A stretch of 64,000 nucleotides of DNA, taken from IMG/VR virus record IMGVR_UViG_3300031369_000001, positions 38,615 to 102,614 of that record; one strand, written 5' to 3'. The notes beneath the pieces are model-generated. The model was not told where the DNA came from, ran no database searches, and saw only the letters and a program-made list of their open reading frames with translations. This stretch comes from a virus. Below are positions 8,519-53,591 of the stretch, in pieces; positions within the stretch are counted from its first letter, which is position 1; every line of letters begins with the position of its first letter. A program made the translations under genes and the position numbers.

Positions 8519-8523
8519 TTATT

Positions 8524-11500
8524 ATGCCGTTAACTCCTGATCAAATATTAGAAATCCAAGATATAATTGAATTACATCATAATGCATTTATAGCTAATAC
8601 AATTGGTCATGATGCGTTACCTGATGAAGTAATTGATGAATTACGAGATAAAGGATTATTGAATAAAGAATCTAAAGACCTTATTAAGAAGATATATGAA
8701 TACGGTCAAGTGCTTGGTAAATTGAATAGTCCCCAAGCTTCACAGATGTCCTATAATAGATTTGAAGATTATATTCAAAAAAATCCACAACCGTTAACGC
8801 AAATGCAACAACGAGCTGTTCGTATGGCCCAAGTGAATGCCGGTCAGTATTGTATGGGATTAGGAAATATAATTGAAAAAGATACGGGAAGAACTTTAAT
8901 AGAAGCAGATCAAAGATTTAGAATTGCATATGAGGATAAAATAAAAAATCTTACTGCTTTAAATGCTGCAAGAAGAGAGAGTATTGAAAAGCTTAGAAGT
9001 GATTTAGGTTGGTCTACAGGGGATTGGGCTAGGGATATGAAACGAATTGCTGTAACTGAAATAATGTATTCAACGCAGCAAGGACAAGCGGATTACCTTA
9101 GAAAGAAATATGGAGAAGATGTTTTTGTTGCACGTATTCCTAATCCAGGGGCGTGTAAGCATTGTATTCGTTTACATATTGGTCCAGATGGGCAGCCTAG
9201 AATATTTAAATTATCTACTTTAGAGGAACATGGTAGTAACGTAGGACGAAAACAAAATGATTGGCAAGCTGTAGTTGGCCCAGTTCATCCTAATTGTGTA
9301 TGCAACATGATTAGTGTTCCAAAGGGATGGGGATTCAATGAAGAAGGAGACTTGCTTCCAGGAGGTAAGTTAGGGGAAATATATTATGAACCAGAAGAAT
9401 TAGAAAGGGCTTTAATTGAAGAAAATCTTTTTTATAAATCTTTAAAGGCTAAGGTTAATATAGTTTTCCAAGGAATTCCTATTGTTATTGAAACTCCAAA
9501 AGGAGATAAGCGAAAATGGATTAATGGAGATGGTTCGATAGGGGAAACCATTATGCAGGAAGCTTCTTATGGATTCGTAAAAAATACTACTTCTATGGAT
9601 GAAGAAGAATTAGATGTATTCGTTGGACCATTTAAAGATTCACCTGTAGTTTATATAATTGATCAAAAGAATCCGGATAATGAACTATATGATGAACAGA
9701 AATGTATGCTTGGTTTTCGAAATGAAGAACATGCATTAAATGTATATAGAATGAATTACGATAATCCAGATAAATTTATTTATGACTGTAGTTCGATGGA
9801 TATAGAAGCCTTTAAGAGATGGTGTGGGATAGGTATTATTCGAGAAGAAATATATAAAGCCTTATTCATAGGACCTAAAGGTGGTAAATGGGCAAATGCT
9901 GAACATACCATACCTTATCAAGATCCTAGTTTAGCAATGAGAAATAAAGCTAGTAATTTTTATGATGGATTGATTAGTTGGGTAAAGGATAATAAAGATA
10001 ATTTACAATTTGATTCAAATGGAAATGTTTATATACAGGCAAATCAATTTACAAATGATAAAAATTTATCGCATTTACATATACTGATTACTCCTAAAGG
10101 AGTTTTTAGAGGCAATGGTATTGGTAAAACTAGTGATGGGAAAGATGTATTAGTGTTAACTAATTTAAGAAATCCATATGATACTACTTATTTAGACACT
10201 AGAATAACTAGTAGAGTTATTATACACGAAATATCTCATTATCTTAATGCTGGATACGATAAAGTTCATAATATAGTAACTGAGCATGGTAAAGAATATT
10301 ATAATCAATCTGTCGAATTTGATGCATTTTGGAATGAAGGTGCTGGGGAATTGGAAAGATTTATTCGTAATTTTAAAGACACAAATCAACATCATATATT
10401 TGAAAGGATAGTAGGAAATTCTCCTGATTTTAAGTACTTTAATAGTAAAGTAAAATCTTTTTGGGATAAAACCTTTTTGAATAGTTTAACAGAAGCTAAT
10501 AAGAAAAAATTTGATAAAAGATTATATAGATTATGGGATGATTTAAAAAGCAATATCTATAAATCTAATTACGATTTATCCCCTGGTCCAGGTTCTGGAT
10601 TGAATTTCTTTTTAGGTACTAATGTAAATAAACCGAATAGTGGAGGAACTATTCGATATAAAGAAGTATTGGAATTAGGTAAAGAGGAATTAGAAAAACG
10701 TAAAAAGCAAAAAGGTAATAAAGGTATTTACGGGGATATAGAGGATTATCAATTTGGCGAAAACATTATACCGGTTAAAGAATTGATAATTCCTGAGACC
10801 GTAAAAGAGTCTAAGAAAGAAGCACGGAAGAAAAATAAGGATGTGAATAAATTTGTACTTACTAGAAGATTAAAATGGAAAAAAGGAAATGTAAATAATT
10901 TAAATAAATCATTGTTCATTGGTCCACGTGGAGGTAAATGGGCTGATTCAGAACATACTATACCTTGGAAAGAAGAAGTATCAACAAATGGTAAATTTGT
11001 TGATACTAACGATAGTGCTTTAAGTAACGTATTGGCGGAATTGTTGGGAAAAAATATTCATTTAGAAAAAGTTAGGGAAACAGATAAAGAGTTGTTTTAT
11101 AGAGGGGGTAAGGAGTTACTTATTGGTGCTAAGAAGCTAATTAATGCTTTAAAAAATAAAGGATTTAAGGTAGAAATAATTCCGCAAGGAAAGAACCTTC
11201 CTATAGTTGTTTTGAATAAGCCAATAAAAAAAGAACCAATAAAGAAAGAACCAATAAAGAAAGAACCAATAAAGAAAGAACCAATAAAGAAAGAACCAAT
11301 AAAGCTATCCAGTGATGAAGTTATAAAACAAGATAAAGTTTTAAAGGATAAAAAGATTTTTAACAAATTAAGTAGTGATTATGTTAATAGGATTAATAAT
11401 ATTTACAAAGTATTAAAAGACGATAAAGATTTTAAATACTTTGTAAAATCTATTGGTCATACTAATGTAAAAGATACTATTGAATACTTAATTAATAAAT

Positions 11501-12069
11501 GGAATGAGACAGGAAGTGACCATGATATACATTTAATTATTTTACAAAAAGCTGCGATGGATGAGTTTGGATTGGATAGTGGGACGATTAAACATTTTGA
11601 TAAGAAGTTATTAAATAAGGTACATAAAATACCTAAAACTGTTATGGGGGCAAGAAAATTTATAAGAGCGCAGTATAGTCTTACACAAGAATATCTAAAA
11701 AAACAGGGGATATCGGAAATTATTCTGTTTAGAGGAATGCAACTTAAAAAGATTAAAAGTGATGGTAGGTCTAAAGAGATTGAAGTTACTTCCCAACCTC
11801 TATCTTCTTGGTCTACTTCTTTTTCAGAGGCTAAAGATTTTTCTGTAAGGGGGGCAGTTGGTAGTTCTTCTTTTTCTAGTGTTTTATTGTCTAAAAAAGT
11901 TCCTATAGAACAAATATTTTCTATACCAAAGGTTGGTATAGGTGAAAGTGATGAACAAGAATGCGTTTTACTTGGAAATAAGAAAGATCCTGAAAAAGTG
12001 ATTTCTTTAGCTGCTGATTATCATTATATGTATAATATTAATGTAAAACAATTATATGGAGAAAAGTAA
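8524..12069 (+). CDS. Polyvalent MuF head protein: MuF / pyrophosphatase-like / peptidase-like / ADP-ribosyltransferase
   Basis: ATG 8524 preferred (AAGGGG upstream); a GTG at 8515 is the alternative. Numbering from 8524, residues about 140-280 are a MuF head-morphogenesis domain (ACKHC, VHPNCVC). About 310-430 resembles the InPase domain of polyvalent proteins (ETPKGDKRKWI, ELDVFVGP). A linker copy follows at about 446-467. About 480-780 holds HEISH at 568-572, a zinc-peptidase-like signature, with further acidic residues (EFDAFWNEGAGELE). A second linker lies near 798-819. KEPIK repeats follow, then an ADP-ribosyltransferase: R1070 (LFRGMQ), STS at 1097-1099, and E1144-x-E1146 (DEQEC). R-STS-ExE with two glutamates is typical of arginine-modifying ARTs. 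Family knowledge: MuF proteins with C-terminal toxins are packaged and injected. The target is unknown. Confidence 0.87.
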   Translation: MPLTPDQILEIQDIIELHHNAFIANTIGHDALPDEVIDELRDKGLLNKESKDLIKKIYEYGQVLGKLNSPQASQMSYNRFEDYIQKNPQPLTQMQQRAVRMAQVNAGQYCMGLGNIIEKDTGRTLIEADQRFRIAYEDKIKNLTALNAARRESIEKLRSDLGWSTGDWARDMKRIAVTEIMYSTQQGQADYLRKKYGEDVFVARIPNPGACKHCIRLHIGPDGQPRIFKLSTLEEHGSNVGRKQNDWQAVVGPVHPNCVCNMISVPKGWGFNEEGDLLPGGKLGEIYYEPEELERALIEENLFYKSLKAKVNIVFQGIPIVIETPKGDKRKWINGDGSIGETIMQEASYGFVKNTTSMDEEELDVFVGPFKDSPVVYIIDQKNPDNELYDEQKCMLGFRNEEHALNVYRMNYDNPDKFIYDCSSMDIEAFKRWCGIGIIREEIYKALFIGPKGGKWANAEHTIPYQDPSLAMRNKASNFYDGLISWVKDNKDNLQFDSNGNVYIQANQFTNDKNLSHLHILITPKGVFRGNGIGKTSDGKDVLVLTNLRNPYDTTYLDTRITSRVIIHEISHYLNAGYDKVHNIVTEHGKEYYNQSVEFDAFWNEGAGELERFIRNFKDTNQHHIFERIVGNSPDFKYFNSKVKSFWDKTFLNSLTEANKKKFDKRLYRLWDDLKSNIYKSNYDLSPGPGSGLNFFLGTNVNKPNSGGTIRYKEVLELGKEELEKRKKQKGNKGIYGDIEDYQFGENIIPVKELIIPETVKESKKEARKKNKDVNKFVLTRRLKWKKGNVNNLNKSLFIGPRGGKWADSEHTIPWKEEVSTNGKFVDTNDSALSNVLAELLGKNIHLEKVRETDKELFYRGGKELLIGAKKLINALKNKGFKVEIIPQGKNLPIVVLNKPIKKEPIKKEPIKKEPIKKEPIKKEPIKLSSDEVIKQDKVLKDKKIFNKLSSDYVNRINNIYKVLKDDKDFKYFVKSIGHTNVKDTIEYLINKWNETGSDHDIHLIILQKAAMDEFGLDSGTIKHFDKKLLNKVHKIPKTVMGARKFIRAQYSLTQEYLKKQGISEIILFRGMQLKKIKSDGRSKEIEVTSQPLSSWSTSFSEAKDFSVRGAVGSSSFSSVLLSKKVPIEQIFSIPKVGIGESDEQECVLLGNKKDPEKVISLAADYHYMYNINVKQLYGEK
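9851..9923 (+). repeat. Shared linker cassette, copy 3 (73-bp perfect direct repeat)
   Basis: Identical at all 73 positions to 5418-5490. Separates the pyrophosphatase-like from the peptidase-like domain. Confidence 0.95.
10915..10980 (+). repeat. Shared linker cassette, copy 4 (type A)
   Basis: Encodes FIGPRGGKWADSEHTIPW plus KEEV, between the peptidase-like region and the KEPIK/ADP-ribosyltransferase region. 63 of 66 bases match copy 1. Confidence 0.9.
11221..11304 (+). repeat. 15-bp tandem repeat coding (PIKKE)n
   Basis: CCAATAAAR begins every 15 bases at 11221, 11236, 11251, 11266, 11281 and 11296, coding PIKKE units. It forms a charged spacer before the ADP-ribosyltransferase part. Copy number could change by slippage without loss of frame. 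Confidence 0.95.
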
Positions 12070-20601: not shown

Positions 20602-22032
20602 ATGTTAGAGAACATGGTTAGTTTTTCAGATTATGATGGCATCGAGGGATATGGAAGTGTTCAGCAGCAAGAAGTAGTTGACTTGAATAAAGCTTTAACT
20701 GCTGGACAAGATATAGCGGCGCCTACTGTTGCTGCTGGAGAAGGCTTTCCTTTACGGGTTGAGTCTTTAGAGAATACCTTAAAAACGGTTACCTTTACGG
20801 CAAAAGAAATTGTTTTTTGGAAAGCTATTCCCAAAATCCCTGCATACAATACGGTGGAAGAGCATAATCAGATTTCGAATTATGGATCTAATGAGGATTC
20901 TGGATTCATTCCGGAAGGTGCGCTTCCTGAAAGTGATGATTCTACTTATGCGCGAAAGTACGCGGTGGTAAAGTTTTTAGGTACTACTCGATCTGTAACT
21001 CATGTAATGAGTCTCGTTCGGCCAGCGCATGGTAACGTTATCGCCAATGAAACCGTTAATGGAACATTGCATTTACTTCGTATTTTGGAAAAAGCTCTTT
21101 ATTACGCGGATTCTTCTTTATCTGCTGTTCAATTTGATGGCTTTAATAAGCTAATTACGGATAATGCAGATTCTGATCATGTATTAGATTTAAGAGGAGC
21201 GCCTCTTACCGAGGATATTTTATCGGACGCAGTAGCTACTGTTAGAACTTCTTATGGATTTCCTACTCATCTTCATTTAAACCATAAGACTAAGTCGGAA
21301 TTAACTAAGACATTTTTCCCCAAAGAGCGACATAATACTTTTACTGATAATAGTGGTATTATTGGTAATAACATTACTGGGTTTACTTCTGAATCAGGTA
21401 TCGTTCAATTTGTAAGTAATACTTTTCTTACTGGTAACACTGCTTCTTATAATTCCGCAGCAATTGGGGACGCAACTAAAATCCCTGGAACACCTACTAT
21501 CAGTACTTCATTAGCTGCTTCTGGTACGGCAGCTCCGTTATGGACTGCGGATGATGCTGGGAGCTATTATTGGACTGTCGTTGCGTGCAATCGTTATGGG
21601 AGGTCAGCTCCAGTGGACGCAAATGAGGCCGGAGGTGCTTTTGCCGTTGCCACTACGCAAACAGTTACTTTTGGTGTAACACCGTCAACTACTGGAGGTG
21701 CCGGGGCTACTGAATGGTACGAAATTTATCGTACTAAAAAGGGTGGGGCGGATGGTACGGAGAAATTAATTCAACGTATCGTGAACTCTAATACTACAAG
21801 TGAACAAACAATTACGGATTTGAATGCAAGTCTCCCGGACACTACCAATGCCTTTTTACTTCAGCAGAATATTGATAGTCTTTCATTTAAACAATTAGCT
21901 CCGATGGTTAAAATCCCATTAGCGACTATTGCGACAGCCGTTCGTTGGTGTCAGGTTCTTTATGGGGTTCCTGTGCTTTATGCCCCGAATAAGAATTTCT
22001 TATTTAAGAATGTGGGAAAGAATAACTACTAA
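20602..22032 (+). CDS. Major capsid protein with Ig/FN3-like insertion
   Basis: 476 residues. Residues about 1-285 resemble HK97-fold capsid proteins of large myophages (PLRVESLENTLKTVTF, then EDSGFIPEGALPES and VKFLGTTRSVTHVMSLV). Residues about 290-425 look like an inserted Ig/FN3-type domain (PGTPTISTSLAASG, YYWTVVACNRYGRSAP, EWYEIYRTKKGG). The capsid fold then resumes (FKQLAPMVKIPLATIAT, VPVLYAPNKN). Such insertions usually project from the capsid surface. Its base composition is richer in G+C and codon use looks optimised, as expected for an abundant protein. Flanked by stem-loops on both sides. Confidence 0.88.
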   Translation: MLENMVSFSDYDGIEGYGSVQQQEVVDLNKALTAGQDIAAPTVAAGEGFPLRVESLENTLKTVTFTAKEIVFWKAIPKIPAYNTVEEHNQISNYGSNEDSGFIPEGALPESDDSTYARKYAVVKFLGTTRSVTHVMSLVRPAHGNVIANETVNGTLHLLRILEKALYYADSSLSAVQFDGFNKLITDNADSDHVLDLRGAPLTEDILSDAVATVRTSYGFPTHLHLNHKTKSELTKTFFPKERHNTFTDNSGIIGNNITGFTSESGIVQFVSNTFLTGNTASYNSAAIGDATKIPGTPTISTSLAASGTAAPLWTADDAGSYYWTVVACNRYGRSAPVDANEAGGAFAVATTQTVTFGVTPSTTGGAGATEWYEIYRTKKGGADGTEKLIQRIVNSNTTSEQTITDLNASLPDTTNAFLLQQNIDSLSFKQLAPMVKIPLATIATAVRWCQVLYGVPVLYAPNKNFLFKNVGKNNY

Positions 22033-40633: not shown

Positions 40634-42061
40634 ATGGCTAGATTTGTATTAAAGCGTTATGAACAAATATTAGCGGGTATGATTGCTAAATTAGTTGCTA
40701 GAACGGAATTGAATGATCTATTTGATTCTTCTACAGTTAAACATTTATTATCTGCTGCTGCGATGAGTGATGACGAGCAATATTATCAAATATCTTTGAT
40801 TTTATTATTGAACGATATTGATAATGTTGAAAGTGATGATTTAGATGATTTTGCTCAAATATTATCTAATATGACAAACGATGGAGAAACACTTTTACGT
40901 AGACAAAGCAGTAGGTCAGTAGGCACTGTAGTATTTTCTAGGAATATAGTTAGTGGGTCTATAACTAAAGAAGCAGGAATTATTATAAAGACTAATTCGG
41001 GGGTATCTTTTAGAACAACATCTGGATTTACCATTAATTCAGGAGATCCTTCAGTTTTATCAGGACATACAACTGGTCAAGATTCTTCCCCTATTCCTAT
41101 ACAATCCTTATTATTAGGAGAAACTAATAATGTATCAGCAAATACTATAATTAAATTTGCTAATAAACCTATTGGAATTGATTCAGTAATTAATTTATCA
41201 GATACTTTATTAGGAAAAGATAAAGAAAGTGATGATCAATATAGAAAACGTATTAAAGGTTATATTAATTCTTTAGTTAGATCTACTCCACATGCGATGG
41301 AAAATGCGGTATTAGGATTATCTGATTCCATTACTGGGTCAGTTATATTATTCGCTAAATTAATTGAAGATATCGTTAATTTAGGAAATTGCATTTTATA
41401 TATAGATGATGGTACAGGCTATGCCCAAAGTACTGAAGAAATATTAGGGGAAAACGTAACATATGGTTTAGCTGGGCCTCCTGCTAATTCTGCTGTAGGA
41501 GGGGAAACTTATTTATTTTTAGATAATATTGCTATAAATGAAGATGCGCCTTTTATTCTTACTAGTTCAATTAGGGGGGTATTAGTAAAAGATGTTGATT
41601 TTTACTATGATTCATCTAGAGGCCAAATCAATTTTATAACGGCATTAAGCGCTGGTGAGGTTATTACTGGAGACTATACAAAATATACAGGAATAATAGA
41701 ATTAGCACAAAAAGTAATAAATGGTGTTCCTTCGGATAGACTTAATTACCCTGGTTATAGAGGAGGGGGGGTAAGAGTAAAAGTTAAAGCTCCTCAAGTA
41801 TTAATTGTAAACATTGAAGGAAGTATTGTAGTTCAAGAAGGTTATGATACTGACATTGTATATGATAATGCTGAAAGTGCTATTTTACGTTATATAAATA
41901 CTTTAGATATATCTGGTGACGTAATAGTGTCATCTTTAATCACTGTAATTAAAAATGTAGAAGGTGTATATGATGTAGCTATTATTACTCCGTCTAATAA
42001 TATTCCTATATTAGATGATCAATTAGCTAGGACTACTATTAACAATGTGAGTATACGATGA
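40634..42061 (+). CDS. Baseplate J-like protein
   Basis: 475 residues. The core LSDTLLGKDKESDDQYRKRIKGYI and TPHAMENAVLGLSDSITGSVIL are the hallmark of gpJ/gp47-like baseplate proteins, followed by GVPSDRLNYPGYRGGGVRVKV. This protein connects wedges to the periphery. Overlaps the next gene by 4 bp. Confidence 0.82.
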   Translation: MARFVLKRYEQILAGMIAKLVARTELNDLFDSSTVKHLLSAAAMSDDEQYYQISLILLLNDIDNVESDDLDDFAQILSNMTNDGETLLRRQSSRSVGTVVFSRNIVSGSITKEAGIIIKTNSGVSFRTTSGFTINSGDPSVLSGHTTGQDSSPIPIQSLLLGETNNVSANTIIKFANKPIGIDSVINLSDTLLGKDKESDDQYRKRIKGYINSLVRSTPHAMENAVLGLSDSITGSVILFAKLIEDIVNLGNCILYIDDGTGYAQSTEEILGENVTYGLAGPPANSAVGGETYLFLDNIAINEDAPFILTSSIRGVLVKDVDFYYDSSRGQINFITALSAGEVITGDYTKYTGIIELAQKVINGVPSDRLNYPGYRGGGVRVKVKAPQVLIVNIEGSIVVQEGYDTDIVYDNAESAILRYINTLDISGDVIVSSLITVIKNVEGVYDVAIITPSNNIPILDDQLARTTINNVSIR

Positions 42062-42471: not shown

Positions 42472-45400
42472 ATGGCCGTCAATATTATTATAGCAGTAGC
42501 AGGACAAGGATCGGGTAGTGGTGGAGAATCTAGATCGTTTCCATATTCTTTGATAATATCAGATCCTACACCTTTAGTTACTCTAAGTTTATCCGATACA
42601 ACGGGAGTAACTAGTTATTTTTGGGAATTACTTAATCAACCACCTTTTGCTACTGCCGTATTATCTAGTCAAAGTGCTAGTAATCCAACATTTACTCCTA
42701 CATCTACTAGGTGGGGTACTTATCTTATTAGGTGCACCATTATTAGAAATGGTGTTCAAGAAATAGATGAAATAGGTTTAAGTTTTAGAACACCTAATCA
42801 TGATTTACGATTTCCCGCAGCAGGGGAAAAAGTTGAATTTGATTTAGATGATGGATGGGCATTAGCTGAATTTTATTTTTGGCAATATGTTGATAATCTA
42901 TCTATTGGAGGAGGAGGTAGTAGCTATTGGGAAAGGGTGAGTACTATTTTATCTCCTGCTACAAATGGGGATACTATTCAAGTAGGAAGTGGAAGCGCTT
43001 CTTCTCCTTCTTACAGCTACGAATCTGATATAGATACCGGTAGGCGTTTATATAATACAGGAATAGAGGCTTTTACCGTAGGTGGTGTAGACCAATTATT
43101 ATTTGGAAATGATAGTGGTCCCTATATAAAAGCGGCAGATAATCATCAATATTTGAAAATTGGAAATTATAAAACTACCTCTGGTGGATATTCTCAAGTG
43201 GTAATAGAGGGGGTAGGTCATACTAATAATTCAGGGGGTAAGGCTACTATACAAGCAACTGCTCCAACTGGAAAAATTAGTGAATTGGATTTATTATCTA
43301 CTAATATTAGTGGTAGTTCGACAATAAATGTAACATCAAATAGTGGATCATCTATTAGTAGTCCTTCTATTGTGGCTATTAGGTCAGAAGGGCAAGGTCC
43401 TACTAGTTTAACATTAGTTGCAAGTTCTTCTGTTAACGATGTAAATAGTTTGATTAGTTTAAGTAGTACTTCATTAGTTGGGGATTCTTCTATAACTATA
43501 GGAGCGCATGCTCCTATAGGAAATAGTTATATTGCTATAGGTAATAGTAATACACAACAAATTCGATTCACTGATAAAAATTTAGATGATTCTACATATC
43601 CTAATACTTATTGGGCGTTATCTTCTATAGCAGATAATTGGGATGATTTAAATAGTAATTATGGTACGCAAACTTTAGTAGAAATACTTAATACTTTACA
43701 TGACTCAATCGCCTTAACTATTTCTGCTGGCATAGGTATAAGTGCTCCATTAGCAGGAGGGGTGTACACTATATCAGTGCATGATGCTCCTTCAACAGAA
43801 ATCGATTTCAATGTATTATCTGGACATGCTCCTACTGCTTACGCATTGCAAACATATCTTAATTTCGTACAAGGTCCTACGAAACTAAGTTCCACTGATG
43901 GCCTTATTTCAGATGGGGGTAGTGGAACAATAGATATTAGTGCATTAAATGGTTTAGTGAAGTCCTCTAATACAGAAAATGCAAATACTGTTTTTGCTAA
44001 TTGGACCTCTGTTACTGCTTTAAGTATTACTAATAATGATGTAAGTAGTATTGTAGCTAATTATGCTGCTACCCCTACTATTACTGCTAGTACTGATTTA
44101 TCTAGCTCACTTGCTTTAAATAAAATTTTACTTTCTTTAGTAAAAAGAGAAAGCACTTCTATTGAATATCTCAACATAGACGCACAAGGTTCTGATTTAG
44201 GATATGGTATTAATGAAAAATCTATTATTAAAAATAATTATAAGCCTGAATACGGGACGGGTATAATTATTAGTGGAACTGGTACTCGTAATTTAGCTAT
44301 AACTTCTGGATGGATGTATTGGGGTTTATCTAAGGTAGTGTCTTCTGTTTTTGATTCTAGTTCATCAGATACATGGTCTAATTTTTATACAACAGATAGT
44401 GGGACTACTTGGACAAAAGTTACTAGCCAAACTCAAATAGATAATGCTAATTACAATAATATTGCTAGTGGATTAAGCGCTTTAGGTGCGAGTGAATATG
44501 GTTTATTTTGGATATATCGTAATTACTCTAATACGGATATATATGTTGTTTACGGAATTGCATCTTATGCAACATTAGATGCAGCAAAAGAAGTTCCTAC
44601 TCCTTCTTTAGTTCCTTGGCAGGTTAATGAATTTTCCTATTTAATAGGAAGAGTAATTACTCAACAAGGAACAGACACACTTGACGTTACTTCTATATTT
44701 ATTGATGAAATTGCAGGAGGAACCGTTAGTGTACATAATCTTTTAAGCCTTATTCAAGGAGGAACGTCTAATCAACGTTACCATTTGACAGAAACACAGC
44801 ATAATGATTTAACCACAAATATGCCTTTAGATCCCATTAGCGTTATATTTACAGATGGGTCTAATCAATTAGCTACGCATGCGAATTTGAAATATAGTCC
44901 TGGAGGAACTACGGGCTATTTGAATTTTACAATTGCTGGATCTTCTACAGCGGCAGGTTCTATTGTTTCTTCAGCTATAGATGGGAGTACTTCTTTAGGT
45001 ATGGTTTCTACTAGTGTAGGGACATCAGGTGGTGCATCAGTTATTTCTATAGAAGCCAAAGGTAATGATGGTACAGGAAGTTACGGTATTTATACTAATC
45101 CACAAGGAGAGCATAGGTGGGAAATAGATGGGGAACCTCTTTTATATCTAAATTTTGTATCTTCAGAGCATTCAAGATTAACTGGTAAGCAAAAATATTT
45201 AGATATATACAATACTCATACAACGCCTAGTACTGATGAAGATTCCACTATATTAATTACTAATACTGCTTATGATACTGCGAATATTACTATTGAGAAT
45301 AGTGCGACTAATTCTAGTGGTTCAGTTAGTACTTCTATAAAATCGTTGTTACCCGATGGAGCAGCTAGTATTGATATATTATCGGATAGTTCTAATACTT

Positions 45401-46623
45401 CGGGTGGGAGTTCTGTAGTTACGGTAAAGGCTACTGGAAATAGTGGATCATCCACTTTACAATTAGATACTGATGTATATTTTAAAATAGATGATGTTGC
45501 TGTATTTAAAATATCTGATTTTACAGATCCTAATGATGAAACTGAATTGTCTATTCCAGGAGGCACTGGAGATAGAACTTTATATATACGTAATTTGCAA
45601 ACTAATGGGTCGGCTTATACATCAATTATAAATAAATCTATTGCTACAGATTCTGGTAGTACTGAAGCAGGTTTAGGATTTATTTGTGAATCAACCGAAG
45701 ATAGCGTAGATGCTTATATTCAGATAGCCGCTACCACTACAGGAGCAAATGCAAATGCTGATATAGACATTGTTTCTCAAGTAGGAAGTGGGGATGGAAC
45801 TAGAAAATCAGCAGTACGTTTTCAATATGATAATCCTTCAGCAGTTGATTCATCAGTATCAATACTAGAATCAACTGCTAAAGCAGACGATTCTATTTAT
45901 GCTAGATTTAAAACAGTGGCTGGTAATTATGGACCCCTTGGTGGATTTATAGAAATAGAATCTACAGGAAGTTTATCAATAGATTCTTCTTCAGGAAATT
46001 TTACTTTTGGAAGTTTACTTACAATTGATTCACCTATTACTAGAGTAGAATCTCCTAAATTTGTAGTAGGTGTAAATTGTACCATGAACCATGGTAATTA
46101 CGCTAGGGGCTACGGGGAGTACGTTTCTACTATATTTGAAGGAGCAAGTCATTTTAGTTTAGATAGAAAGGATACTAATAGCGGTAGTGTGATGGGGGGG
46201 AACGGGCTAATACTCACAGTAGCGACTAGTGGAAATGAGACAGCACATTTTAGATACAAATTATCAGATTCTCAGGATGATTCTTATACTCCTTTTAAGA
46301 TACCTGAAAATAGAATTATTTGTATCAGTGGTACAGTAGTCTCTTCTTGTACAGGTTCACATATAGATGCAATTTATGTTCAGAAATTTAATTGGGTTTT
46401 ATGGAATTCTACATATCATGCCGATGAACCTGGAGACGGTGCTTTAGTTGTGTTAGATAGGGCTAGCTGGTTACCTACTATTAGTGTTGATTATATTGCT
46501 ACAGATGGATGGTTTAATTTAGATGTTACCGTTTCTGGCGCATCAGTGGGCGATACTGTTTTACATGTTTGTCATATCACTGAATTTACAGTTGCGGAAA
46601 CAGCTTATGTAGCATCAAGTTAA
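42472..46623 (+). CDS. Long tail-fibre or baseplate structural protein, 1383 aa
   Basis: The N-terminus is an Ig/PKD-like domain (VTSYFWELLNQPPFATAVLSS, TSTRWGTYLIRCTIIR). Then come long beta-repetitive regions with Ser/Thr/Ile-rich motifs, as expected for trimeric fibres. The C-terminal 150 residues (CTGSHIDAIYVQKFNWVLW) may be a receptor-binding head. No membrane segments. SD AGGAG. The stop overlaps the start of a glycosyltransferase gene. The length and repeats, not a catalytic motif, support the call. Confidence 0.7.
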   Translation: MAVNIIIAVAGQGSGSGGESRSFPYSLIISDPTPLVTLSLSDTTGVTSYFWELLNQPPFATAVLSSQSASNPTFTPTSTRWGTYLIRCTIIRNGVQEIDEIGLSFRTPNHDLRFPAAGEKVEFDLDDGWALAEFYFWQYVDNLSIGGGGSSYWERVSTILSPATNGDTIQVGSGSASSPSYSYESDIDTGRRLYNTGIEAFTVGGVDQLLFGNDSGPYIKAADNHQYLKIGNYKTTSGGYSQVVIEGVGHTNNSGGKATIQATAPTGKISELDLLSTNISGSSTINVTSNSGSSISSPSIVAIRSEGQGPTSLTLVASSSVNDVNSLISLSSTSLVGDSSITIGAHAPIGNSYIAIGNSNTQQIRFTDKNLDDSTYPNTYWALSSIADNWDDLNSNYGTQTLVEILNTLHDSIALTISAGIGISAPLAGGVYTISVHDAPSTEIDFNVLSGHAPTAYALQTYLNFVQGPTKLSSTDGLISDGGSGTIDISALNGLVKSSNTENANTVFANWTSVTALSITNNDVSSIVANYAATPTITASTDLSSSLALNKILLSLVKRESTSIEYLNIDAQGSDLGYGINEKSIIKNNYKPEYGTGIIISGTGTRNLAITSGWMYWGLSKVVSSVFDSSSSDTWSNFYTTDSGTTWTKVTSQTQIDNANYNNIASGLSALGASEYGLFWIYRNYSNTDIYVVYGIASYATLDAAKEVPTPSLVPWQVNEFSYLIGRVITQQGTDTLDVTSIFIDEIAGGTVSVHNLLSLIQGGTSNQRYHLTETQHNDLTTNMPLDPISVIFTDGSNQLATHANLKYSPGGTTGYLNFTIAGSSTAAGSIVSSAIDGSTSLGMVSTSVGTSGGASVISIEAKGNDGTGSYGIYTNPQGEHRWEIDGEPLLYLNFVSSEHSRLTGKQKYLDIYNTHTTPSTDEDSTILITNTAYDTANITIENSATNSSGSVSTSIKSLLPDGAASIDILSDSSNTSGGSSVVTVKATGNSGSSTLQLDTDVYFKIDDVAVFKISDFTDPNDETELSIPGGTGDRTLYIRNLQTNGSAYTSIINKSIATDSGSTEAGLGFICESTEDSVDAYIQIAATTTGANANADIDIVSQVGSGDGTRKSAVRFQYDNPSAVDSSVSILESTAKADDSIYARFKTVAGNYGPLGGFIEIESTGSLSIDSSSGNFTFGSLLTIDSPITRVESPKFVVGVNCTMNHGNYARGYGEYVSTIFEGASHFSLDRKDTNSGSVMGGNGLILTVATSGNETAHFRYKLSDSQDDSYTPFKIPENRIICISGTVVSSCTGSHIDAIYVQKFNWVLWNSTYHADEPGDGALVVLDRASWLPTISVDYIATDGWFNLDVTVSGASVGDTVLHVCHITEFTVAETAYVASS

Positions 46624-47327
46624 TGATTATTAGTAATGCCCCAATTCGTTGTATAAATATGAGTAAATCTACTGACAGGATACTTCATATTTTATCAATG
46701 TTTAATGAAGTTAAGCGTATTACTGCTATTGACGGTATGCGATTTTCTAATAATAGTTTTGATGCATATAAAAGACCTAATTGGGATAATAATAAATATC
46801 CTATAAATTCAAAATATTTTTATATGTTCCCTACTACATATGCTTGTAATTTATCGCATATGAAAGCTTGGATAGATTTTATAGATAGTAAAGACGAATG
46901 GTCTATAATAATTGAAGATGATACTGAACCTGTTATGGATTTATCTAATATAGCTATACCAGATAGTTGTGATTTTTATTATTTAATAGGGGTAAATCAC
47001 CCCGGAAAAAGATTATTTTTATATGATGATGGGCAAGTCAAGTTTAGTAGAACTTTAGGGGCTTATTTGCTATCTAAAAAGGCCGCTATACTTTCGTTAG
47101 AGGCTATGAAACCTATTCATTATTTTCAAGCAGATTGGCAAATACCTTTTAGAATTTTTGAATCTATGAAAAATTGTAAAATACCCCAGCCTAATTGGGA
47201 TAATAAATTACCTACAATAAAAGCATATGGACAAAGAGAATCTATTATAAAACATTCACAATTTTCAAAGGTATCTACTTTTACAAAAGATGGAAGTAAA
47301 TCTTGGATACCAAATAGTTTGCTTTAA
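46623..47327 (+). CDS. Glycosyltransferase, GT25-like
   Basis: 234 residues. IRCINMSKSTDR with ITAIDGMRF is the GT25 N-terminal motif, followed by YACNLSHMKAW (S78-H79) and SIIIEDDTEP (E98-D99-D100, metal/sugar site). A later TLGAYLLSKKAAI and ADWQIPFRIF complete the family. GT25 enzymes transfer galactose to LPS or proteins. It starts by TAATG overlap with the long fibre gene and lies inside the tail operon, so a target on the fibres (or a host surface sugar) is plausible. Donor and acceptor unknown. Confidence 0.8.
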   Translation: MIISNAPIRCINMSKSTDRILHILSMFNEVKRITAIDGMRFSNNSFDAYKRPNWDNNKYPINSKYFYMFPTTYACNLSHMKAWIDFIDSKDEWSIIIEDDTEPVMDLSNIAIPDSCDFYYLIGVNHPGKRLFLYDDGQVKFSRTLGAYLLSKKAAILSLEAMKPIHYFQADWQIPFRIFESMKNCKIPQPNWDNKLPTIKAYGQRESIIKHSQFSKVSTFTKDGSKSWIPNSLL

Positions 47328-47339
47328 AGGAAATTTTAG

Positions 47340-49598
47340 ATGACTGTTAAAGGTTATGGTTTAGGAGAATATGGTACGATAGAACCTTGGGGTTCTGTAG
47401 AATATCCCACTGCTACTGGTTTACATAATTCTGTTAATACTGATTTTATGGGGATACTCCAAGCTATTTCTGGGATAATAGGTGAATCTGATAATGAGTT
47501 AGGTGGATTATACTCTACTAGATTAGTTTTTGTCGGAAGCATTGGGGACACAGAAATAGAAGTAGAATCTACATTAAATTGGTCCTATCCTGGTAAATTA
47601 GCAATAGATGGTATTTTATATTATTATGTTAGTATTGTAGGAAATACAATAGGCGGATTGTACTATATCAATGAAAGTATTATTGAACTTGGATTAGCAA
47701 AAATACATAATGTAGATTCTGAAGTAGTTAATGTAAATGAAAATCTTAATGCAATTCAATTGGCAAAAAAAAGTTTGTTGGTTAGTTATGCTGAGGATGA
47801 ATATTTAGATGCTATTGGGCGAAAATATGGTGTACCACGAAAGCCTTTATATGGGGATAATGATACTTATAGAGAAATAATTAAAGCTATAGCATTTGCG
47901 CCTAGAGGTACTATTTATGGAATAGAATTAGCATTAAATGCTTTATTAGGTGTTGGTAATTACGAAATATATGAAGATTTAATACAATATCCTAATGTTG
48001 TATTTATTAAGATAAATGAATCTTATTTTTTAAATGATACACCATACGGAGAAACTTATATATCTGAAAATTTATTTGGTTTCATTAGTGGTGGATCATA
48101 TAACACAATTGTATTGCCATATAGTCCATTAAAAGTTTCTTATGCAAAATTAAAAGATTTAGGAGAAACCTTTGATTTTAGAAACGAAATTCCTTCAGAT
48201 AGTATGTATGAGTATTTTGAAGGAAATGGATTAGATCATGCATTTACTTATTACGGTTCTGCTAGTGAATCTGATGTAACTGCTAATGGTGATTATACTA
48301 ATTTTAATTTGTCATCTTCTGGATCCTTATATTATGAAATGTCTGATGTTCAAGGATCTCGAATTACAGTTGATTCAGATGTAGAATTAAATTTTGTAAT
48401 TCGTATACCAAGTACTTCTTCATTAGCAAATGGTATATTAAAGCAAGTTTATTTTGCTATTTATGATGGAAGTAAAATTGTTAATTTTGGTCTTAATGAT
48501 GATTATAGTATAGGTTTATTTGATACTGAGGCAGGAGGATTTATTGGTGGATCCTATACTTTGCTTCTAGATACATTTTATAATGTTAAAATAGTTAAAT
48601 TAAAAAATACTAGTGTTTCTTTATATGTAAACGGTATCATTGTTTCTAATATATCATATACTTCATTTACTACATCAACTGTTTTACATAAAATACTTTT
48701 TGGAATTTTAGGAGCACCTCCTACTATTGGCGGATCTTTTGATATTAAACAATTAGGTATACACATTAAAAATTATAAAGATTACTGGTTTTCTGAATAC
48801 AATAATGTAGGTAGTGTTGATAGTTTATCACCGACAGTTTTTAACATAACAGGTAGTCATTTATTTACTAGTAATGACGTTGGTAAGTACTTTCAAGTCA
48901 AGGGGTCATCTATTTCTAATTTATATGGTGGCAATAATAATGTAATTGGGAAAATAAAAAACGTGTTATCTACAACTAGTATAGTATTAGAGCCTATAGA
49001 ATATAGTAGATGTATAATTGGGGTATTAGGTAATAATAATATTTTAAAATTAGGAGATAATCATACTAAATTTACATATCCTGATGATTTAGGAAAAAAG
49101 ATAGAAATCAATAATTCTAATTTAGGAAATAATGGTACCTATACTATTATTGATTTACTAGTTGAAGGTTTTTTGGAAAATTATGGAGTAATTAAGTCTA
49201 TTGGGTCCTACCTTACAAATAATAAAGAATATACAAATATAGCTGTACTAAACGCTACATTAATTCCTGAAGAAAATTTGGATATTCAAATATTGATATC
49301 TTTTGAAACAGAATCTAATCTAGATTTTATTCATTCAGATACTGGGTCTAAAATTAGTGATACATTGACTTTACGATCTGGTCTATGGAATAGTGATTTA
49401 GTTATGGACATAGGGATAAGTAATGCGTTATCAGCCCAATTATTACAAGATCATCTTGTACATAATAATATCATAAGTACTTCTCCATTACTTTATAAAT
49501 ATTATCCATTTTATTTATCTGATGTTTTTGGGGAATTAGAAGAATTTTTAGAAGATCTGACTATTGCGGGAGTAATTCCTAAATTGTTAGGAAAGTGA
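47340..49598 (+). CDS. Baseplate protein with tail-protein-I-like and lectin-like regions
   Basis: 752 residues. The section EYLDAIGRKYGVPRKPLYGDND followed by FAPRGTIYGIELALNALLG matches gp48/tail protein I-like baseplate proteins. About 290-480 looks like a LamG/ConA-type lectin sandwich (VELNFVIRIPSTSS, KIVKLKNTSVSLYVNGIIVS, FDIKQLGIHIKNYKDYWF). The C-terminus is unknown. Carbohydrate binding is inferred. It follows the glycosyltransferase by 12 bases. Confidence 0.65.
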   Translation: MTVKGYGLGEYGTIEPWGSVEYPTATGLHNSVNTDFMGILQAISGIIGESDNELGGLYSTRLVFVGSIGDTEIEVESTLNWSYPGKLAIDGILYYYVSIVGNTIGGLYYINESIIELGLAKIHNVDSEVVNVNENLNAIQLAKKSLLVSYAEDEYLDAIGRKYGVPRKPLYGDNDTYREIIKAIAFAPRGTIYGIELALNALLGVGNYEIYEDLIQYPNVVFIKINESYFLNDTPYGETYISENLFGFISGGSYNTIVLPYSPLKVSYAKLKDLGETFDFRNEIPSDSMYEYFEGNGLDHAFTYYGSASESDVTANGDYTNFNLSSSGSLYYEMSDVQGSRITVDSDVELNFVIRIPSTSSLANGILKQVYFAIYDGSKIVNFGLNDDYSIGLFDTEAGGFIGGSYTLLLDTFYNVKIVKLKNTSVSLYVNGIIVSNISYTSFTTSTVLHKILFGILGAPPTIGGSFDIKQLGIHIKNYKDYWFSEYNNVGSVDSLSPTVFNITGSHLFTSNDVGKYFQVKGSSISNLYGGNNNVIGKIKNVLSTTSIVLEPIEYSRCIIGVLGNNNILKLGDNHTKFTYPDDLGKKIEINNSNLGNNGTYTIIDLLVEGFLENYGVIKSIGSYLTNNKEYTNIAVLNATLIPEENLDIQILISFETESNLDFIHSDTGSKISDTLTLRSGLWNSDLVMDIGISNALSAQLLQDHLVHNNIISTSPLLYKYYPFYLSDVFGELEEFLEDLTIAGVIPKLLGK

Positions 49599-49604
49599 GG
49601 AATA

Positions 49605-51788
49605 ATGAAAAAATTATTAAGAGTACAATCTAATGAACGAGTAGATTTTAATGATTTTAAATTTTTAGCAGGAGATAGCGTTACTGCTCAAATTAGGGAA
49701 TTAGTAAATCAGTTTATATGTAATCCAGATGAATACAATCAAAGTATCATTTCGGGATTTGCAATGTCTAATCCATCTGGAAATCAAGTAAGGGTGGATA
49801 AAGGGAAAGCTATATTACACCAAAGAGTTGACGGTTCAGTTATTTATTCAATATTGGCTACTGAAGGAGAAGATTACAGGATAATAGACATATCTACTTA
49901 TCCTGATAATTCCTACAATATTTATATTAGATTTGACTTAATACCAAGTGACAATGAAGGTCGTATATTTTGGAACCCATCCGGTAATGGATCAGAGTAT
50001 ACACAGGCAATAGAGACTCGTTATTCTGCTAATTGGTCTATTCGTATAGAAACTAGTATTCCTGGTGAAGAATGGTTTTTAATCGGTACAGTTGTCAAAC
50101 CAGGTATGTCTATTATTGATAAACGTGATTTTTATTTTGAAGGTTCTGTTGAGAATAATTATCAAACTGGTTGGAGTAGTGATGGAGGAGGAAGTAGTAT
50201 CGATAGAAATGATAATAGAAGTTTGTATGGTGTAACTGATTTACATACATTTGTTAAAGCTATGCAACAATGCATTATTGATATAAAAGGTCGGGGTTTA
50301 CGTAATTGGTGGGATAAAGATATTGGTGGAATGAATGTTGGGTTTGATGATGACCCTATTGAAAATGTTCTAGGAATAGGAGATTCTAATTTCTTTTTGA
50401 AATTAGAAGGTAGTCCTACTACTGGAGTATGCACTATTAATTTTGATACAGATTCCCATTTAAAATATGGTAGAGTAGAAGATTCTTTGACTTTTTCTTT
50501 ATCTAATAAAACATTACTTAAATTGCGAAATGGGGATGATATTTCAGTAAATGGTGGAAGGCTTATTAGTTGTTGCTTAGATGATAATGCCCCAACTTTG
50601 GCTACTTATAAAATAGATGAATTTAAAATTTTGGAAACTACTAATATTTATACAGGAGGAAATCTAAATTCTTTTATTAGTAGGTCTAATCAATGGTATA
50701 AGGAGAATGGTACTAATATATTTCCTAGAGCGCAATTACTGGAAGGATTGAATGTTGTAACGGGTATTGATCATTATGCAGGTGGATCTTTTAGCATAAG
50801 TAATTTAGTTAATTCAATTAGAATTGAACCAGGTGTAGCATACATAAATGGTGCTACTATGTTTGTGAAAGATAGTAGTGGCCAATCAATTGTTTTATCT
50901 GATTTATGGAATGGTGATTCTAATGGCGGATTAACTGCTGAAGCAAAGACTTATATAGGAAGTGCCACAAATGGATATGAAAATTGTTTTTGTCTTTATG
51001 TCTGGCTACGTAAAGATGGTACTTTTTGGCTTGAACCATTTGGTCCAGACATTGACTCGAGAATACCTTGGAAATATGGAGGACCAAGGGTTAAGCCTAG
51101 ATCTCAATCCGGTTTACCCCAAACTGGTTTTAGAGATGATGAATATTTATTAATTGATGTATGCTGGTTAGTACATGGAAAAGCAGCAACGGGTTCTTCT
51201 AGTGATATTATTAATCTATCTGGAGCACTTTATACAGGTGGAGATTATCGTTCTTTTGAAGTAGCTAATTATTTAAGTACTGAAGTAAATGGTACTATTT
51301 TTTATACAAGTGATTTATCTTCTGGGTACCATTACATTGATTTGGATTATGTTGACACAGGAGGTGCTTATCAGAGAAGATCTCCAGGTATACCTGGAGC
51401 ACTTAGTAGAATGGCAAGAGTAGCGATAGTTGGGACTGTTCAGTTAGATCCTAGTGCGTCTGTTAATTTATATATAGGAATGGGTAAATATATATCAGGA
51501 AGTTCCTTGAATTGTGATTCTATTGATCAAGGATGTGGTTTTTGTGTGAGTGAAGAAAATAATTTTGGAAGTAATATTACTATACCTTTTAGAGGTACAG
51601 CGGATATAGAAACAAGTCCTTATATGGATAATACTGTAAGTGGGGGAGGTAGAATTAGAAATAAATTAATTACCTTTTTAGGAGGTAGTGGAACTTTTAC
51701 TATTAGTTTGTCTTTAAGCTTAGTTGGGTTTTATTGGAATAGAAAAGATGTTAATATATTGTCTAGATCGATTGAAACTGTTTCCTAA
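49605..51788 (+). CDS. Large tail-fibre/baseplate appendage protein, 727 aa
   Basis: The N-terminus (LLRVQSNERVDFNDFKFLAGDSV) resembles the attachment end of phage baseplate appendages that contain 'Rxxxxx DxxDF' starts. The rest is beta-rich with Gly/Asp/Asn runs (GTADIETSPYMDNT, SGTFTISLSLSL). No catalytic motif. Third of the large appendage genes; probably distal or side fibre. SD GTGAGGAA. Confidence 0.6.
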   Translation: MKKLLRVQSNERVDFNDFKFLAGDSVTAQIRELVNQFICNPDEYNQSIISGFAMSNPSGNQVRVDKGKAILHQRVDGSVIYSILATEGEDYRIIDISTYPDNSYNIYIRFDLIPSDNEGRIFWNPSGNGSEYTQAIETRYSANWSIRIETSIPGEEWFLIGTVVKPGMSIIDKRDFYFEGSVENNYQTGWSSDGGGSSIDRNDNRSLYGVTDLHTFVKAMQQCIIDIKGRGLRNWWDKDIGGMNVGFDDDPIENVLGIGDSNFFLKLEGSPTTGVCTINFDTDSHLKYGRVEDSLTFSLSNKTLLKLRNGDDISVNGGRLISCCLDDNAPTLATYKIDEFKILETTNIYTGGNLNSFISRSNQWYKENGTNIFPRAQLLEGLNVVTGIDHYAGGSFSISNLVNSIRIEPGVAYINGATMFVKDSSGQSIVLSDLWNGDSNGGLTAEAKTYIGSATNGYENCFCLYVWLRKDGTFWLEPFGPDIDSRIPWKYGGPRVKPRSQSGLPQTGFRDDEYLLIDVCWLVHGKAATGSSSDIINLSGALYTGGDYRSFEVANYLSTEVNGTIFYTSDLSSGYHYIDLDYVDTGGAYQRRSPGIPGALSRMARVAIVGTVQLDPSASVNLYIGMGKYISGSSLNCDSIDQGCGFCVSEENNFGSNITIPFRGTADIETSPYMDNTVSGGGRIRNKLITFLGGSGTFTISLSLSLVGFYWNRKDVNILSRSIETVS

Positions 51789-51817: not shown

Positions 51818-52123
51818 ATGTCTGAAAGTGCTAGTATTTATCCATTAACGCAAGAATCATTAAAAGATTTAATTGAGGGAAATATTTCCGCAGTAAATGA
51901 TGAAACAAAATATCTAGTTTCTGAGCTAATTAAAGCAAAAGAGTTTGTTACTCAAAATCTTCCTAAATTACAAGAATTGAAAAATCAAGCTACTGCCTTA
52001 GCTAAAGAGATTGAATTTATGGATTATCGTTTTAAAACTTTACAAACTGATTTAAGGAATATTTGGCCTTCAAATTCTATCCCTTCTACTGAAGAACATC
52101 GGGTTCCGAAGATTAATTCCTAA
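51818..52123 (+). CDS. Small coiled-coil protein, 101 aa
   Basis: Starts MSESASIYPLTQESLKD after AAAAGGAG. Long helix with heptad hydrophobics (ELIKAKEFVTQNLPKLQELKNQATALAKEIEFM) suggests a coiled coil, e.g. a fibre-assembly chaperone or a small trimeric tail component. Last gene before a strong terminator. Confidence 0.6.
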   Translation: MSESASIYPLTQESLKDLIEGNISAVNDETKYLVSELIKAKEFVTQNLPKLQELKNQATALAKEIEFMDYRFKTLQTDLRNIWPSNSIPSTEEHRVPKINS

Positions 52124-52188: not shown

Positions 52189-52222
52189 AAACGTACTGCT
52201 TACGCAGTACGTTTTTTCTTTT
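52189..52222 (+). terminator. Rho-independent terminator at end of tail module
   Basis: Perfect 11-bp stem AAACGTACTGC / GCAGTACGTTT with loop TTAC and a T-run (GTTTTTTCTTTT). Closes the tail operon. Confidence 0.95.
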
Positions 52223-52559: not shown

Positions 52560-53141
52560 ATGAAATTCAAAGATATACCCCAGTTTACTCGTGATGGAAA
52601 TTATGTAGTTAATGTTTCTTGGAGATATTTAGAAGAAACATTAAATCATTATAAAGAAGATTTTGAGTTACAGTTAGATCCAGATTTTCAAAGACCACAT
52701 GTATGGGATTTGGAAAAACAACAACGTTATGTTGAATTCATTTTGCGAGGAGGAAAATCTTCTCGCGATATTTATTTTAACCAAGCCAATTGGATGCGTT
52801 GGAAAAAGGATACAGATTTAAAAAATCCTTTAGTATTAGTAGATGGAAAACAACGTTTAAATGCTGTTAGATTATTTCTTAATAACGAAATAAAAGCATT
52901 TGGATGTTATTTTAAAGAATTTGAGGATTCTTTACATATTACTGTGGATTTTATATTTCATGTTAATAGTTTATATACTAGAAAAGAAGTGTTACAATGG
53001 TATTTAGATCTTAATAGTGGCGGAGTAGTTCATACTGAAGAAGAGTTGGATCACGTTCGCAAATTATTATTAAAAGAAATAAGCGGAATAGATTTAGATT
53101 ATTATCATAAAGGGATAAAACGAAAAGCCATTAAAAATTAA
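52560..53141 (+). CDS. DUF262-type protein (ParB-like fold)
   Basis: 193 residues. LDPDFQRPHVWD (FQR at 43-45), a helical RYVEFILRGG, then LVLVDGKQRLNAV (DGKQR at 95-99) and LNSGGVVHT form the signature of the DUF262/ParB-like nucleotide-binding domain (GmrS-like). It is a single domain without the nuclease half found in GmrSD. In phages such proteins may act as nucleases, NTPases or decoys of host systems; only the domain is certain. Followed by a hairpin-rich gap. Confidence 0.7.
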   Translation: MKFKDIPQFTRDGNYVVNVSWRYLEETLNHYKEDFELQLDPDFQRPHVWDLEKQQRYVEFILRGGKSSRDIYFNQANWMRWKKDTDLKNPLVLVDGKQRLNAVRLFLNNEIKAFGCYFKEFEDSLHITVDFIFHVNSLYTRKEVLQWYLDLNSGGVVHTEEELDHVRKLLLKEISGIDLDYYHKGIKRKAIKN

Positions 53142-53487: not shown

Positions 53488-53571
53488 GCCGGGATGGTGG
53501 AACAGGTAGACACAAGGGACTTAAAATCCCTCGGGGGCAACCCCATACGGGTTCGATTCCCGTTCTCGGCA
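53488..53571 (+). tRNA. tRNA-Leu (anticodon UAA)
   Basis: Full cloverleaf: acceptor GCCGGGA / TCTCGGC (one G-U), D-arm GTGG...CAC, anticodon arm AGGGA-CTTAAAA-TCCCT with UAA at 53522-53524, long variable arm (GGGGGCAACCCC) and T-arm ACGGG-TTCGATT-CCCGT. Discriminator A at 53571; CCA is not encoded. UUA is a preferred Leu codon in this AT-rich genome, so it would boost phage translation. Confidence 0.95.
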
Positions 53572-53591
53572 CTATAGAAAGGAGCAATAAA

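What the first reader, a model, noticed from the sequence alone, without database searches (positions are those of the whole stretch)
46623..47327. GT25-like glycosyltransferase inside the tail-fibre operon
The gene starts on the stop codon of the 1383-aa fibre gene and is followed by a baseplate protein with a lectin-like part. Phage glycosyltransferases usually act on DNA or host O-antigen; the position suggests self-decoration of tail fibres.
Basis: partly seen in the sequence, partly recalled or inferred. Interest (0 to 1): 0.65.

Follow-up and report, generated by a model that had tools for sequence, protein, structure and literature searches.

The report
Phage fibre tip with dedicated sugar-transferase
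The gene beside this virus's giant tail-fibre gene encodes a real sugar-attaching enzyme, and the same pair (fibre tip followed directly by this enzyme) recurs in otherwise unrelated uncultured phages, which suggests that the enzyme puts a sugar on the part of the phage that grips its host.

Summary
ORF 46623-47327 (234 aa) is a GT25 glycosyltransferase: Pfam PF01755 E=7e-8, AlphaFold pLDDT 87, GT25-type structural matches (collagen galactosyltransferase, bacterial beta-1,4-galactosyltransferase), invariant EDD and Asp171. It starts on the fibre's stop codon (TAATG). Closest phage relatives with the same baseplate operon lack both this fibre and the enzyme. New here: 53-56%-identical enzymes occur in two other phage backgrounds that share nothing else detectable with this virus in the compared regions except the last ~210 residues of the fibre, encoded immediately upstream. 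A scan with a fibre-tip motif alone found seven contigs besides the window, and in all seven the enzyme begins within 1 nt of the fibre stop. Fibre tip plus GT25 is therefore a portable two-gene module. The main rival, modification of the host receptor that the same tip recognises, is not excluded. No sugar has been shown on any virion protein; donor, acceptor residue and host are unknown. The 'lectin-like part' of the next gene found no profile support. Verdict: new variant of a known kind (phage virion self-glycosylation).

The parts
42472..46623 (+). 1383-aa tail fibre gene; most of it (residues 1 to ~1167) is specific to the window lineage (G000, G001 and the L005 fragment)
45973..46620 (+). 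fibre C-terminal tip domain, residues ~1168-1383: the only part of the fibre shared (28-33%) with the other two phage backgrounds; contains the Y-V-[ST]-T-x3-G-A-x-H motif (from residue 1217) and ends in Ser1383, conserved as the last residue in all eight
46619..46625 (+). stop/start overlap GTTAATG: the GT ATG uses the last base of the fibre TAA; no clear Shine-Dalgarno, so translation is probably coupled to the fibre
46623..47327 (+). GT25 glycosyltransferase, 234 aa, no membrane segment
46914..46922 (+). E98-D99-D100 acidic (metal/nucleotide-sugar) motif of GT25, invariant in 38 aligned phage GT25 proteins (also part of the pattern used to collect most of them)
47133..47135 (+). D171, second invariant acidic residue, not part of the search pattern
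47340..49598 (+). 752-aa baseplate protein; orthologue conserved in relatives that lack the GT (flank of the variable slot)
49605..51788 (+). 727-aa tail protein; N-terminal part conserved in relatives, C-terminal part variable
40634..42061 (+). Baseplate_J protein, left flank of the variable fibre slot
52189..52214 (+). terminator-like hairpin after the last ORF of the tail operon (51818-52123)
   Evidence: pattern match only; 6 found against 3.7 expected

Best explanation
The gene encodes a soluble GT25 glycosyltransferase dedicated to the tip of the tail fibre encoded directly upstream. Shown: it is a complete GT25-type enzyme with the family's acidic residues, and it forms a two-gene module with one particular fibre-tip domain in three unrelated phage backgrounds. 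Inferred: it is translated late, coupled to the fibre gene, and uses the host's nucleotide sugar to attach a sugar to a Ser/Thr of the fibre tip in the cytoplasm before or during tail assembly. That would complete or tune the receptor-binding surface (or shield it from proteases or decoy binding). Candidate acceptors are residues conserved in all tips, such as Thr1220 in the YV[ST]T motif or the C-terminal Ser1383. Because the enzyme is needed for a working tip, the two genes move together when phages exchange adhesins.
For: (1) GT25 identity by profile and fold. (2) Linkage found from the GT side: homologues at 53-56% identity in L110/L174, L175 and L176 each follow a fibre whose C-terminal ~210 aa match residues ~1168-1383 of the window fibre, while no other gene there matches the window convincingly. 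(3) Linkage found from the fibre side with no GT information in the query: a tip-motif scan of IMG/VR gave 7 contigs, 3 of them new, and all 7 have the GT starting between 1 nt before and 1 nt after the fibre stop. (4) Three different backgrounds: baseplate operon of a large myovirus with an SPO1-like capsid protein, between terminase and portal in a ~50 kb phage, and a different Baseplate_J operon in a third group. (5) Relatives sharing the window's capsid and baseplate genes have other fibres in this slot and no GT25, so fibre and GT are gained or lost together. (6) Specificity of the pairing: among 52 upstream neighbours of other phage GT25 genes, only two were tail-fibre proteins, and the cyanophage GT25 genes inspected lie in sugar-metabolism islands. 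(7) No membrane segment and a pI from 4.9 to 8.9 across the family. (8) Precedent: phage-encoded glycosyltransferases glycosylate capsid and tail-tube proteins in mycobacteriophages, with glycans at the C-termini (PMC12363180 and PMC12619734, citing Freeman et al. 2023).
Against: No direct evidence of a sugar on the fibre. GT25 is best known (Pfam title) for LPS biosynthesis. The GT is better conserved (53-56%) than the tip (about 30%) between backgrounds, which would also fit an acceptor outside the tip. Receptor modification would give the same gene linkage. The number of independent backgrounds is three, all uncultured.
Confidence: 0.6

Rival explanations
1. The GT modifies the host surface glycan that the fibre tip recognises (LPS or another envelope glycan), so that infected cells no longer bind progeny or competing phages; the tip and the receptor-masking enzyme travel together because both are matched to one receptor.
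For: GT25 enzymes include LPS galactosyltransferases (Pfam description; bacterial beta-1,4-galactosyltransferase among PDB matches). Linkage to a putative receptor-binding tip is equally expected. The GT is more conserved than the tip.
Against: It is fused by stop/start overlap to a late structural gene in three unrelated contexts rather than placed with early or lysogeny genes. No membrane segment. No flippase, lipid-linked-sugar or nucleotide-sugar genes were found among the proteins scanned. Late expression leaves little time to remodel the envelope (inference).
Confidence: 0.22
2. The GT glycosylates another virion protein (for example the 752-aa or 727-aa baseplate proteins, or the capsid), and its position behind the fibre is historical.
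For: Operon position also brings it next to the 752-aa and 727-aa tail genes. Known phage virion glycosylation concerns capsid and tail tube.
Against: Only the fibre tip, not the downstream genes or the capsid, is shared by the backgrounds that have the GT.
Confidence: 0.1
3. The GT decorates phage DNA (as the T4 glucosyltransferases do).
For: PHROG label 'glucosyltransferase'; a GmrSD_N-like ORF occurs in the same genome at 52560-53141.
Against: No base-hydroxymethylating or other nucleotide-modifying enzyme family among the proteins scanned in the record. The gene lies in a tail operon, not a nucleotide-metabolism cluster. The closest folds are protein- and glycan-acting GT25 enzymes, while the T4 DNA glucosyltransferases have a different fold (GT-B; own knowledge).
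Confidence: 0.03
4. Passenger (moron) gene that happened to insert behind a fibre, with no functional link to it.
Against: Same pair in three unrelated backgrounds, 7 of 7 contigs from the tip-only scan; catalytic residues conserved; purifying pattern between G000 and G001.
Confidence: 0.05

Closest known systems
Mycobacteriophage virion self-glycosylation (Che8, Corndog, Myrna; Freeman et al. 2023, as cited in PMC12363180 and PMC12619734)
   Same: Phage-encoded glycosyltransferases act on the phage's own virion proteins, with glycans at protein C-termini.
   Different: Targets are capsid and tail-tube subunits. In the one mycobacteriophage locus inspected (Mycofy1, a different phage) the annotated GT genes lie near the genome end, away from fibre genes. 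Here a single GT25 is locked to one fibre-tip domain and travels with it. Sugar transfer is shown there, not here.
GT25 collagen galactosyltransferase ColGalT1/GLT25D1, and mimivirus R655 (named putative glycosyltransferase in the PDB)
   Same: Same family and fold (profile E=2e-38; top Foldseek matches). ColGalT1 transfers galactose to a protein (collagen hydroxylysine).
   Different: About 13-18% identity. The phage fibre has no collagen-type G-X-Y repeats (longest run 2 triplets), so the acceptor must differ.
Bacterial GT25 beta-1,4-galactosyltransferases (8xc8, 8xlz) and LPS GT25 enzymes
   Same: Same size, fold and acidic motif.
   Different: Those act on glycans or lipids of the cell surface (own knowledge); this gene sits in a phage tail operon with no other sugar genes found.
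Cyanophage GT25 genes (Synechococcus phages RN05-S, S-H68, Bellamy; Prochlorococcus phage P-TIM68)
   Same: Nearest hits among 50,697 isolate phages: about 27-32% over the N-terminal ~100 residues.
   Different: They sit in islands of epimerases, sugar dehydrogenases and several GTs, not behind a fibre.
Serotype-converting gtr cassettes of temperate phages
   Same: Phage-encoded glycosyl transfer.
   Different: No gtrA/gtrB-type partners found; late tail-operon location; no lysogeny context seen.

Membership tests
Glycosyltransferase family 25 (PF01755) | Score above the curated family cut-off | tested here: met
   33 bits against a cut-off of 24, E=7e-8; 30.5 bits in six-frame search
Glycosyltransferase family 25 (PF01755) | Conserved C-x-L-S-H...E-D-D core plus downstream invariant Asp | tested here: met
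   C75, H79, E98, D99, D100, D171 invariant in 38 sequences. C, H and EDD were part of the search pattern; D171 was not
Glycosyltransferase family 25 (PF01755) | GT-A fold like solved GT25 structures | tested here: met
   pLDDT 87, pTM 0.86; R655, ColGalT1 and beta-1,4-galactosyltransferases are the top PDB matches, E about 5e-8 to 6e-5. TM-scores are moderate (0.45-0.58)
Glycosyltransferase family 25 (PF01755) | Sugar-nucleotide-dependent transferase activity | not testable with these tools
   needs purified enzyme
Phage virion self-glycosylation system | Glycosyltransferase encoded by the phage and maintained with a virion protein gene | tested here: met
   fibre tip and GT paired in three backgrounds
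Phage virion self-glycosylation system | Sugar covalently on a virion protein, lost when the GT is removed | not testable with these tools
   uncultured virus; needs mass spectrometry
Serotype-conversion (gtr) cassette | GtrA flippase and GtrB bactoprenol transferase partners next to the GT | tested here: not met
   neighbouring ORFs are fibre and baseplate; no such families among the record's larger ORFs scanned
Phage DNA glucosyltransferase system | Phage genes that make a hydroxymethylated or otherwise modifiable base | tested here: not met
   none among the larger ORFs scanned in the 102.6-kb record; the record may be incomplete and small ORFs were not scanned

The most novel reading that the evidence does not exclude
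A mobile adhesin module: a receptor-binding fibre tip whose function needs, or is retuned by, a sugar added by its own dedicated GT25, exchanged as a two-gene unit among unrelated phages, so that host range depends on a phage-made glycan on the fibre tip.
Probability: 0.45. Interest if true: 0.78.

Novelty: new variant of a known kind. Interest (0 to 1): 0.6.

Why it matters
Phage virion glycosylation is documented for capsid and tail tube. A tail-fibre tip with its own dedicated glycosyltransferase would place a post-translational modification on the part that decides host range. It would mean that predicting the function of such fibres from sequence needs the neighbouring enzyme as well, and it gives a defined acceptor (about 210 residues) and enzyme (234 residues) that can be tested in a laboratory strain without the phage.

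Tried and rejected
AlphaFold with only the two 90%-identical GTs failed (pLDDT 29) and was replaced by a 38-sequence alignment. A search of bacterial and archaeal genomes for close relatives found none, so neither a host nor a donor could be named. Isolate phages hold only distant GT25s and no relative of the fibre tip. Collagen-like G-X-Y repeats as acceptor (by analogy with ColGalT1) were checked and not found in the structural proteins examined. Promoter-like sites in the region are fewer than in shuffles (39 against 59.8) and were not used. The 'lectin-like part' of the 752-aa gene was tested and has no profile support. Possible tuning of the donor side by recombination (L174 against L175) was noted but rests on one pair. 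The source paper on mycobacteriophage glycosylation was not in the library and is cited through other papers. Searches for a published fibre glycosylation by a phage enzyme returned none, which is weak evidence since the library is partial.

Full report
Observation. ORF 46623-47327 encodes 234 aa. It scores above the Pfam cut-off for Glyco_transf_25 and matches a phage glucosyltransferase PHROG. The window is bases 38615-102614 of a 102.6-kb IMG/VR virus record, with a single GT25 in it. A second record, G001, carries the same gene at 90% identity in the same order; the GT differs more than its neighbours there (the seven other genes of the tail operon are 95-98% identical), while the core around the CxLSH and EDD motifs is almost unchanged.

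Enzyme. An alignment with 33 other phage GT25 proteins from a motif scan and the four close homologues leaves C75, H79, E98-D99-D100 and D171 invariant. CxLSH and EDD were part of the scan pattern; D171 was not. The model built from this alignment is confident (pLDDT 87, pTM 0.86). Its best PDB matches are mimivirus R655, human collagen galactosyltransferase ColGalT1 and bacterial beta-1,4-galactosyltransferases. The profile of the alignment finds the same proteins by sequence (E about 1e-29 to 1e-38). So it is a complete GT25 enzyme by sequence and predicted fold; activity, donor and acceptor are not shown.

Context. The operon runs Baseplate_J (40634), 134 aa, fibre of 1383 aa, GT, 752-aa baseplate protein, 727-aa tail protein, 101 aa, then a terminator-like hairpin at 52189. 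The GT ATG overlaps the fibre stop (TAATG) and has no clear ribosome-binding site, whereas most neighbouring genes have purine-rich ones. Translational coupling to the fibre is the simplest reading (inference).

Relatives without it. The capsid protein retrieves 17 related contigs. In five with the tail operon readable across the slot (G008, G011, G012, G014, G015), Baseplate_J (cut by the contig end in G014), the 752-aa and the 727-aa orthologues are kept, but the slot between them holds other proteins: unrelated fibre-like ORFs, Laminin_G_3 ORFs, an Ig-domain protein, or nothing. None carries PF01755 and none matches the window fibre. The slot is a variable adhesin site, and fibre and GT come and go together.

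The pair elsewhere. The GT motif scan and an alignment search returned close homologues (53-56%) in L110/L174, L175 and L176. In each, the gene immediately upstream is a fibre whose last ~210 residues match residues ~1168-1383 of the window fibre (28-33% over that stretch), while nothing else in those 16-kb regions matches the window convincingly. The backgrounds differ: L174/L175 place the pair between terminase and portal, followed by scaffold-like and capsid genes; L176 places it after a different Baseplate_J. I then scanned IMG/VR with a DNA pattern for the fibre tip alone (YV[ST]Txxx-GAxHxx[LIMVF]D). It returned seven contigs, three of them new (L180, L181, L182, relatives of L176). All seven have the GT starting between one base before and one base after the fibre stop; in L182 the GT is cut by the end of the fetched locus. 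No tip without the GT and no close GT without the tip was found. The scan was exact-pattern, so more divergent members are missed.

Is fibre adjacency normal for phage GT25? No. Of 52 upstream neighbours of other phage GT25 genes, two matched tail-fibre families (L060, L084); the rest included PhoH, RusA, a halogenase, other GTs and unknowns. The cyanophage GT25 genes, the nearest among isolates, lie in sugar-metabolism islands.

Mechanism. The best explanation is that the enzyme glycosylates the fibre tip. Shown: enzyme family, obligate-looking pairing, mobility as a pair. Inferred: late coupled synthesis, host nucleotide sugar as donor, Ser/Thr of the tip as acceptor, effect on receptor binding or protection. 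Conserved candidates are Thr1220 and the last residue Ser1383; the conserved terminal serine is suggestive because mycobacteriophage glycans sit at protein C-termini (PMC12619734), but the codon also lies against the GT start and may be constrained for that reason. The main rival, masking of the receptor that this tip binds, predicts the same linkage and is set at 0.22. DNA glycosylation is disfavoured by the lack of base-modifying genes among the scanned proteins.

Evolution. GT identity between backgrounds exceeds tip identity (53-58% against 29-37% relative to the window lineage). L174 and L175 have near-identical tips and a near-identical second half of the GT, but the first half of the GT is replaced by a divergent sequence (nucleotide identity down to 59% in one 100-base stretch against about 95% in the flanks). 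The GT of L176 is closer to L174 (78%) than to L180 (70%), while its tip is closer to L180 (48% against 39%), so the module recombines internally. G001 and L181, unrelated phages, come from the same metagenome (3300042731), which fits exchange within one habitat.

Limits. All contigs are uncultured and hosts are unknown. Independent backgrounds number three. The Pfam/PHROG scan covered most larger ORFs of the record, not every small one, and the record may be incomplete.

Noticed in passing
window 1589-6397: 1602-aa protein combining an SNF2-type helicase (residues ~572-927) with a type IB topoisomerase catalytic core (1374-1595): a helicase-topoisomerase fusion.
   Followed up: partly
window 52560-53141: 193-aa ORF with a GmrSD_N (DUF262-type) domain, just after the tail operon; the GmrSD family includes nucleases that attack glucosylated DNA.
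   Followed up: no
window 8515-12069: 1184-aa protein with an InPase-like domain (PF18823) that also resembles parts of large virion or polyvalent phage proteins.
   Followed up: no
window 20602-22032: Major capsid protein 35-37% identical to SPO1-type phages, although the genome is only about 103 kb and the Baseplate_J hits haloarchaeal tailed viruses weakly.
   Followed up: partly
L174 and L175, 8001-8720: First half of the GT gene replaced by divergent sequence while the fibre tip and the second half stay nearly identical: recombination inside the enzyme.
   Followed up: partly
L176 8001-8957; L180 and L181 downstream of the GT: The L176 GT carries an ~80-residue coiled-coil-like extension; in L180/L181 the matching piece is a separate 90-104 aa ORF.
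   Followed up: no
L060 and L084: Two further fibre-then-GT25 pairs (fibres of other PHROG families, larger GT25 proteins of 786 and at least 505 aa, 22-27 nt gaps): possibly convergent examples.
   Followed up: partly
G001 and L181 (both from metagenome 3300042731): Two unrelated phages from the same sample carry the fibre-tip/GT module.
   Followed up: no
L040 7511-8401, L041 10007-10993 (-), L044 6798-7853: Related phages fill the same slot with ConA-like Laminin_G_3 proteins, and L044 has a Gp80-type fibre protein: a variable adhesin locus.
   Followed up: yes
window 53488-53572: tRNA-Leu (TAA) gene downstream of the tail operon.
   Followed up: no
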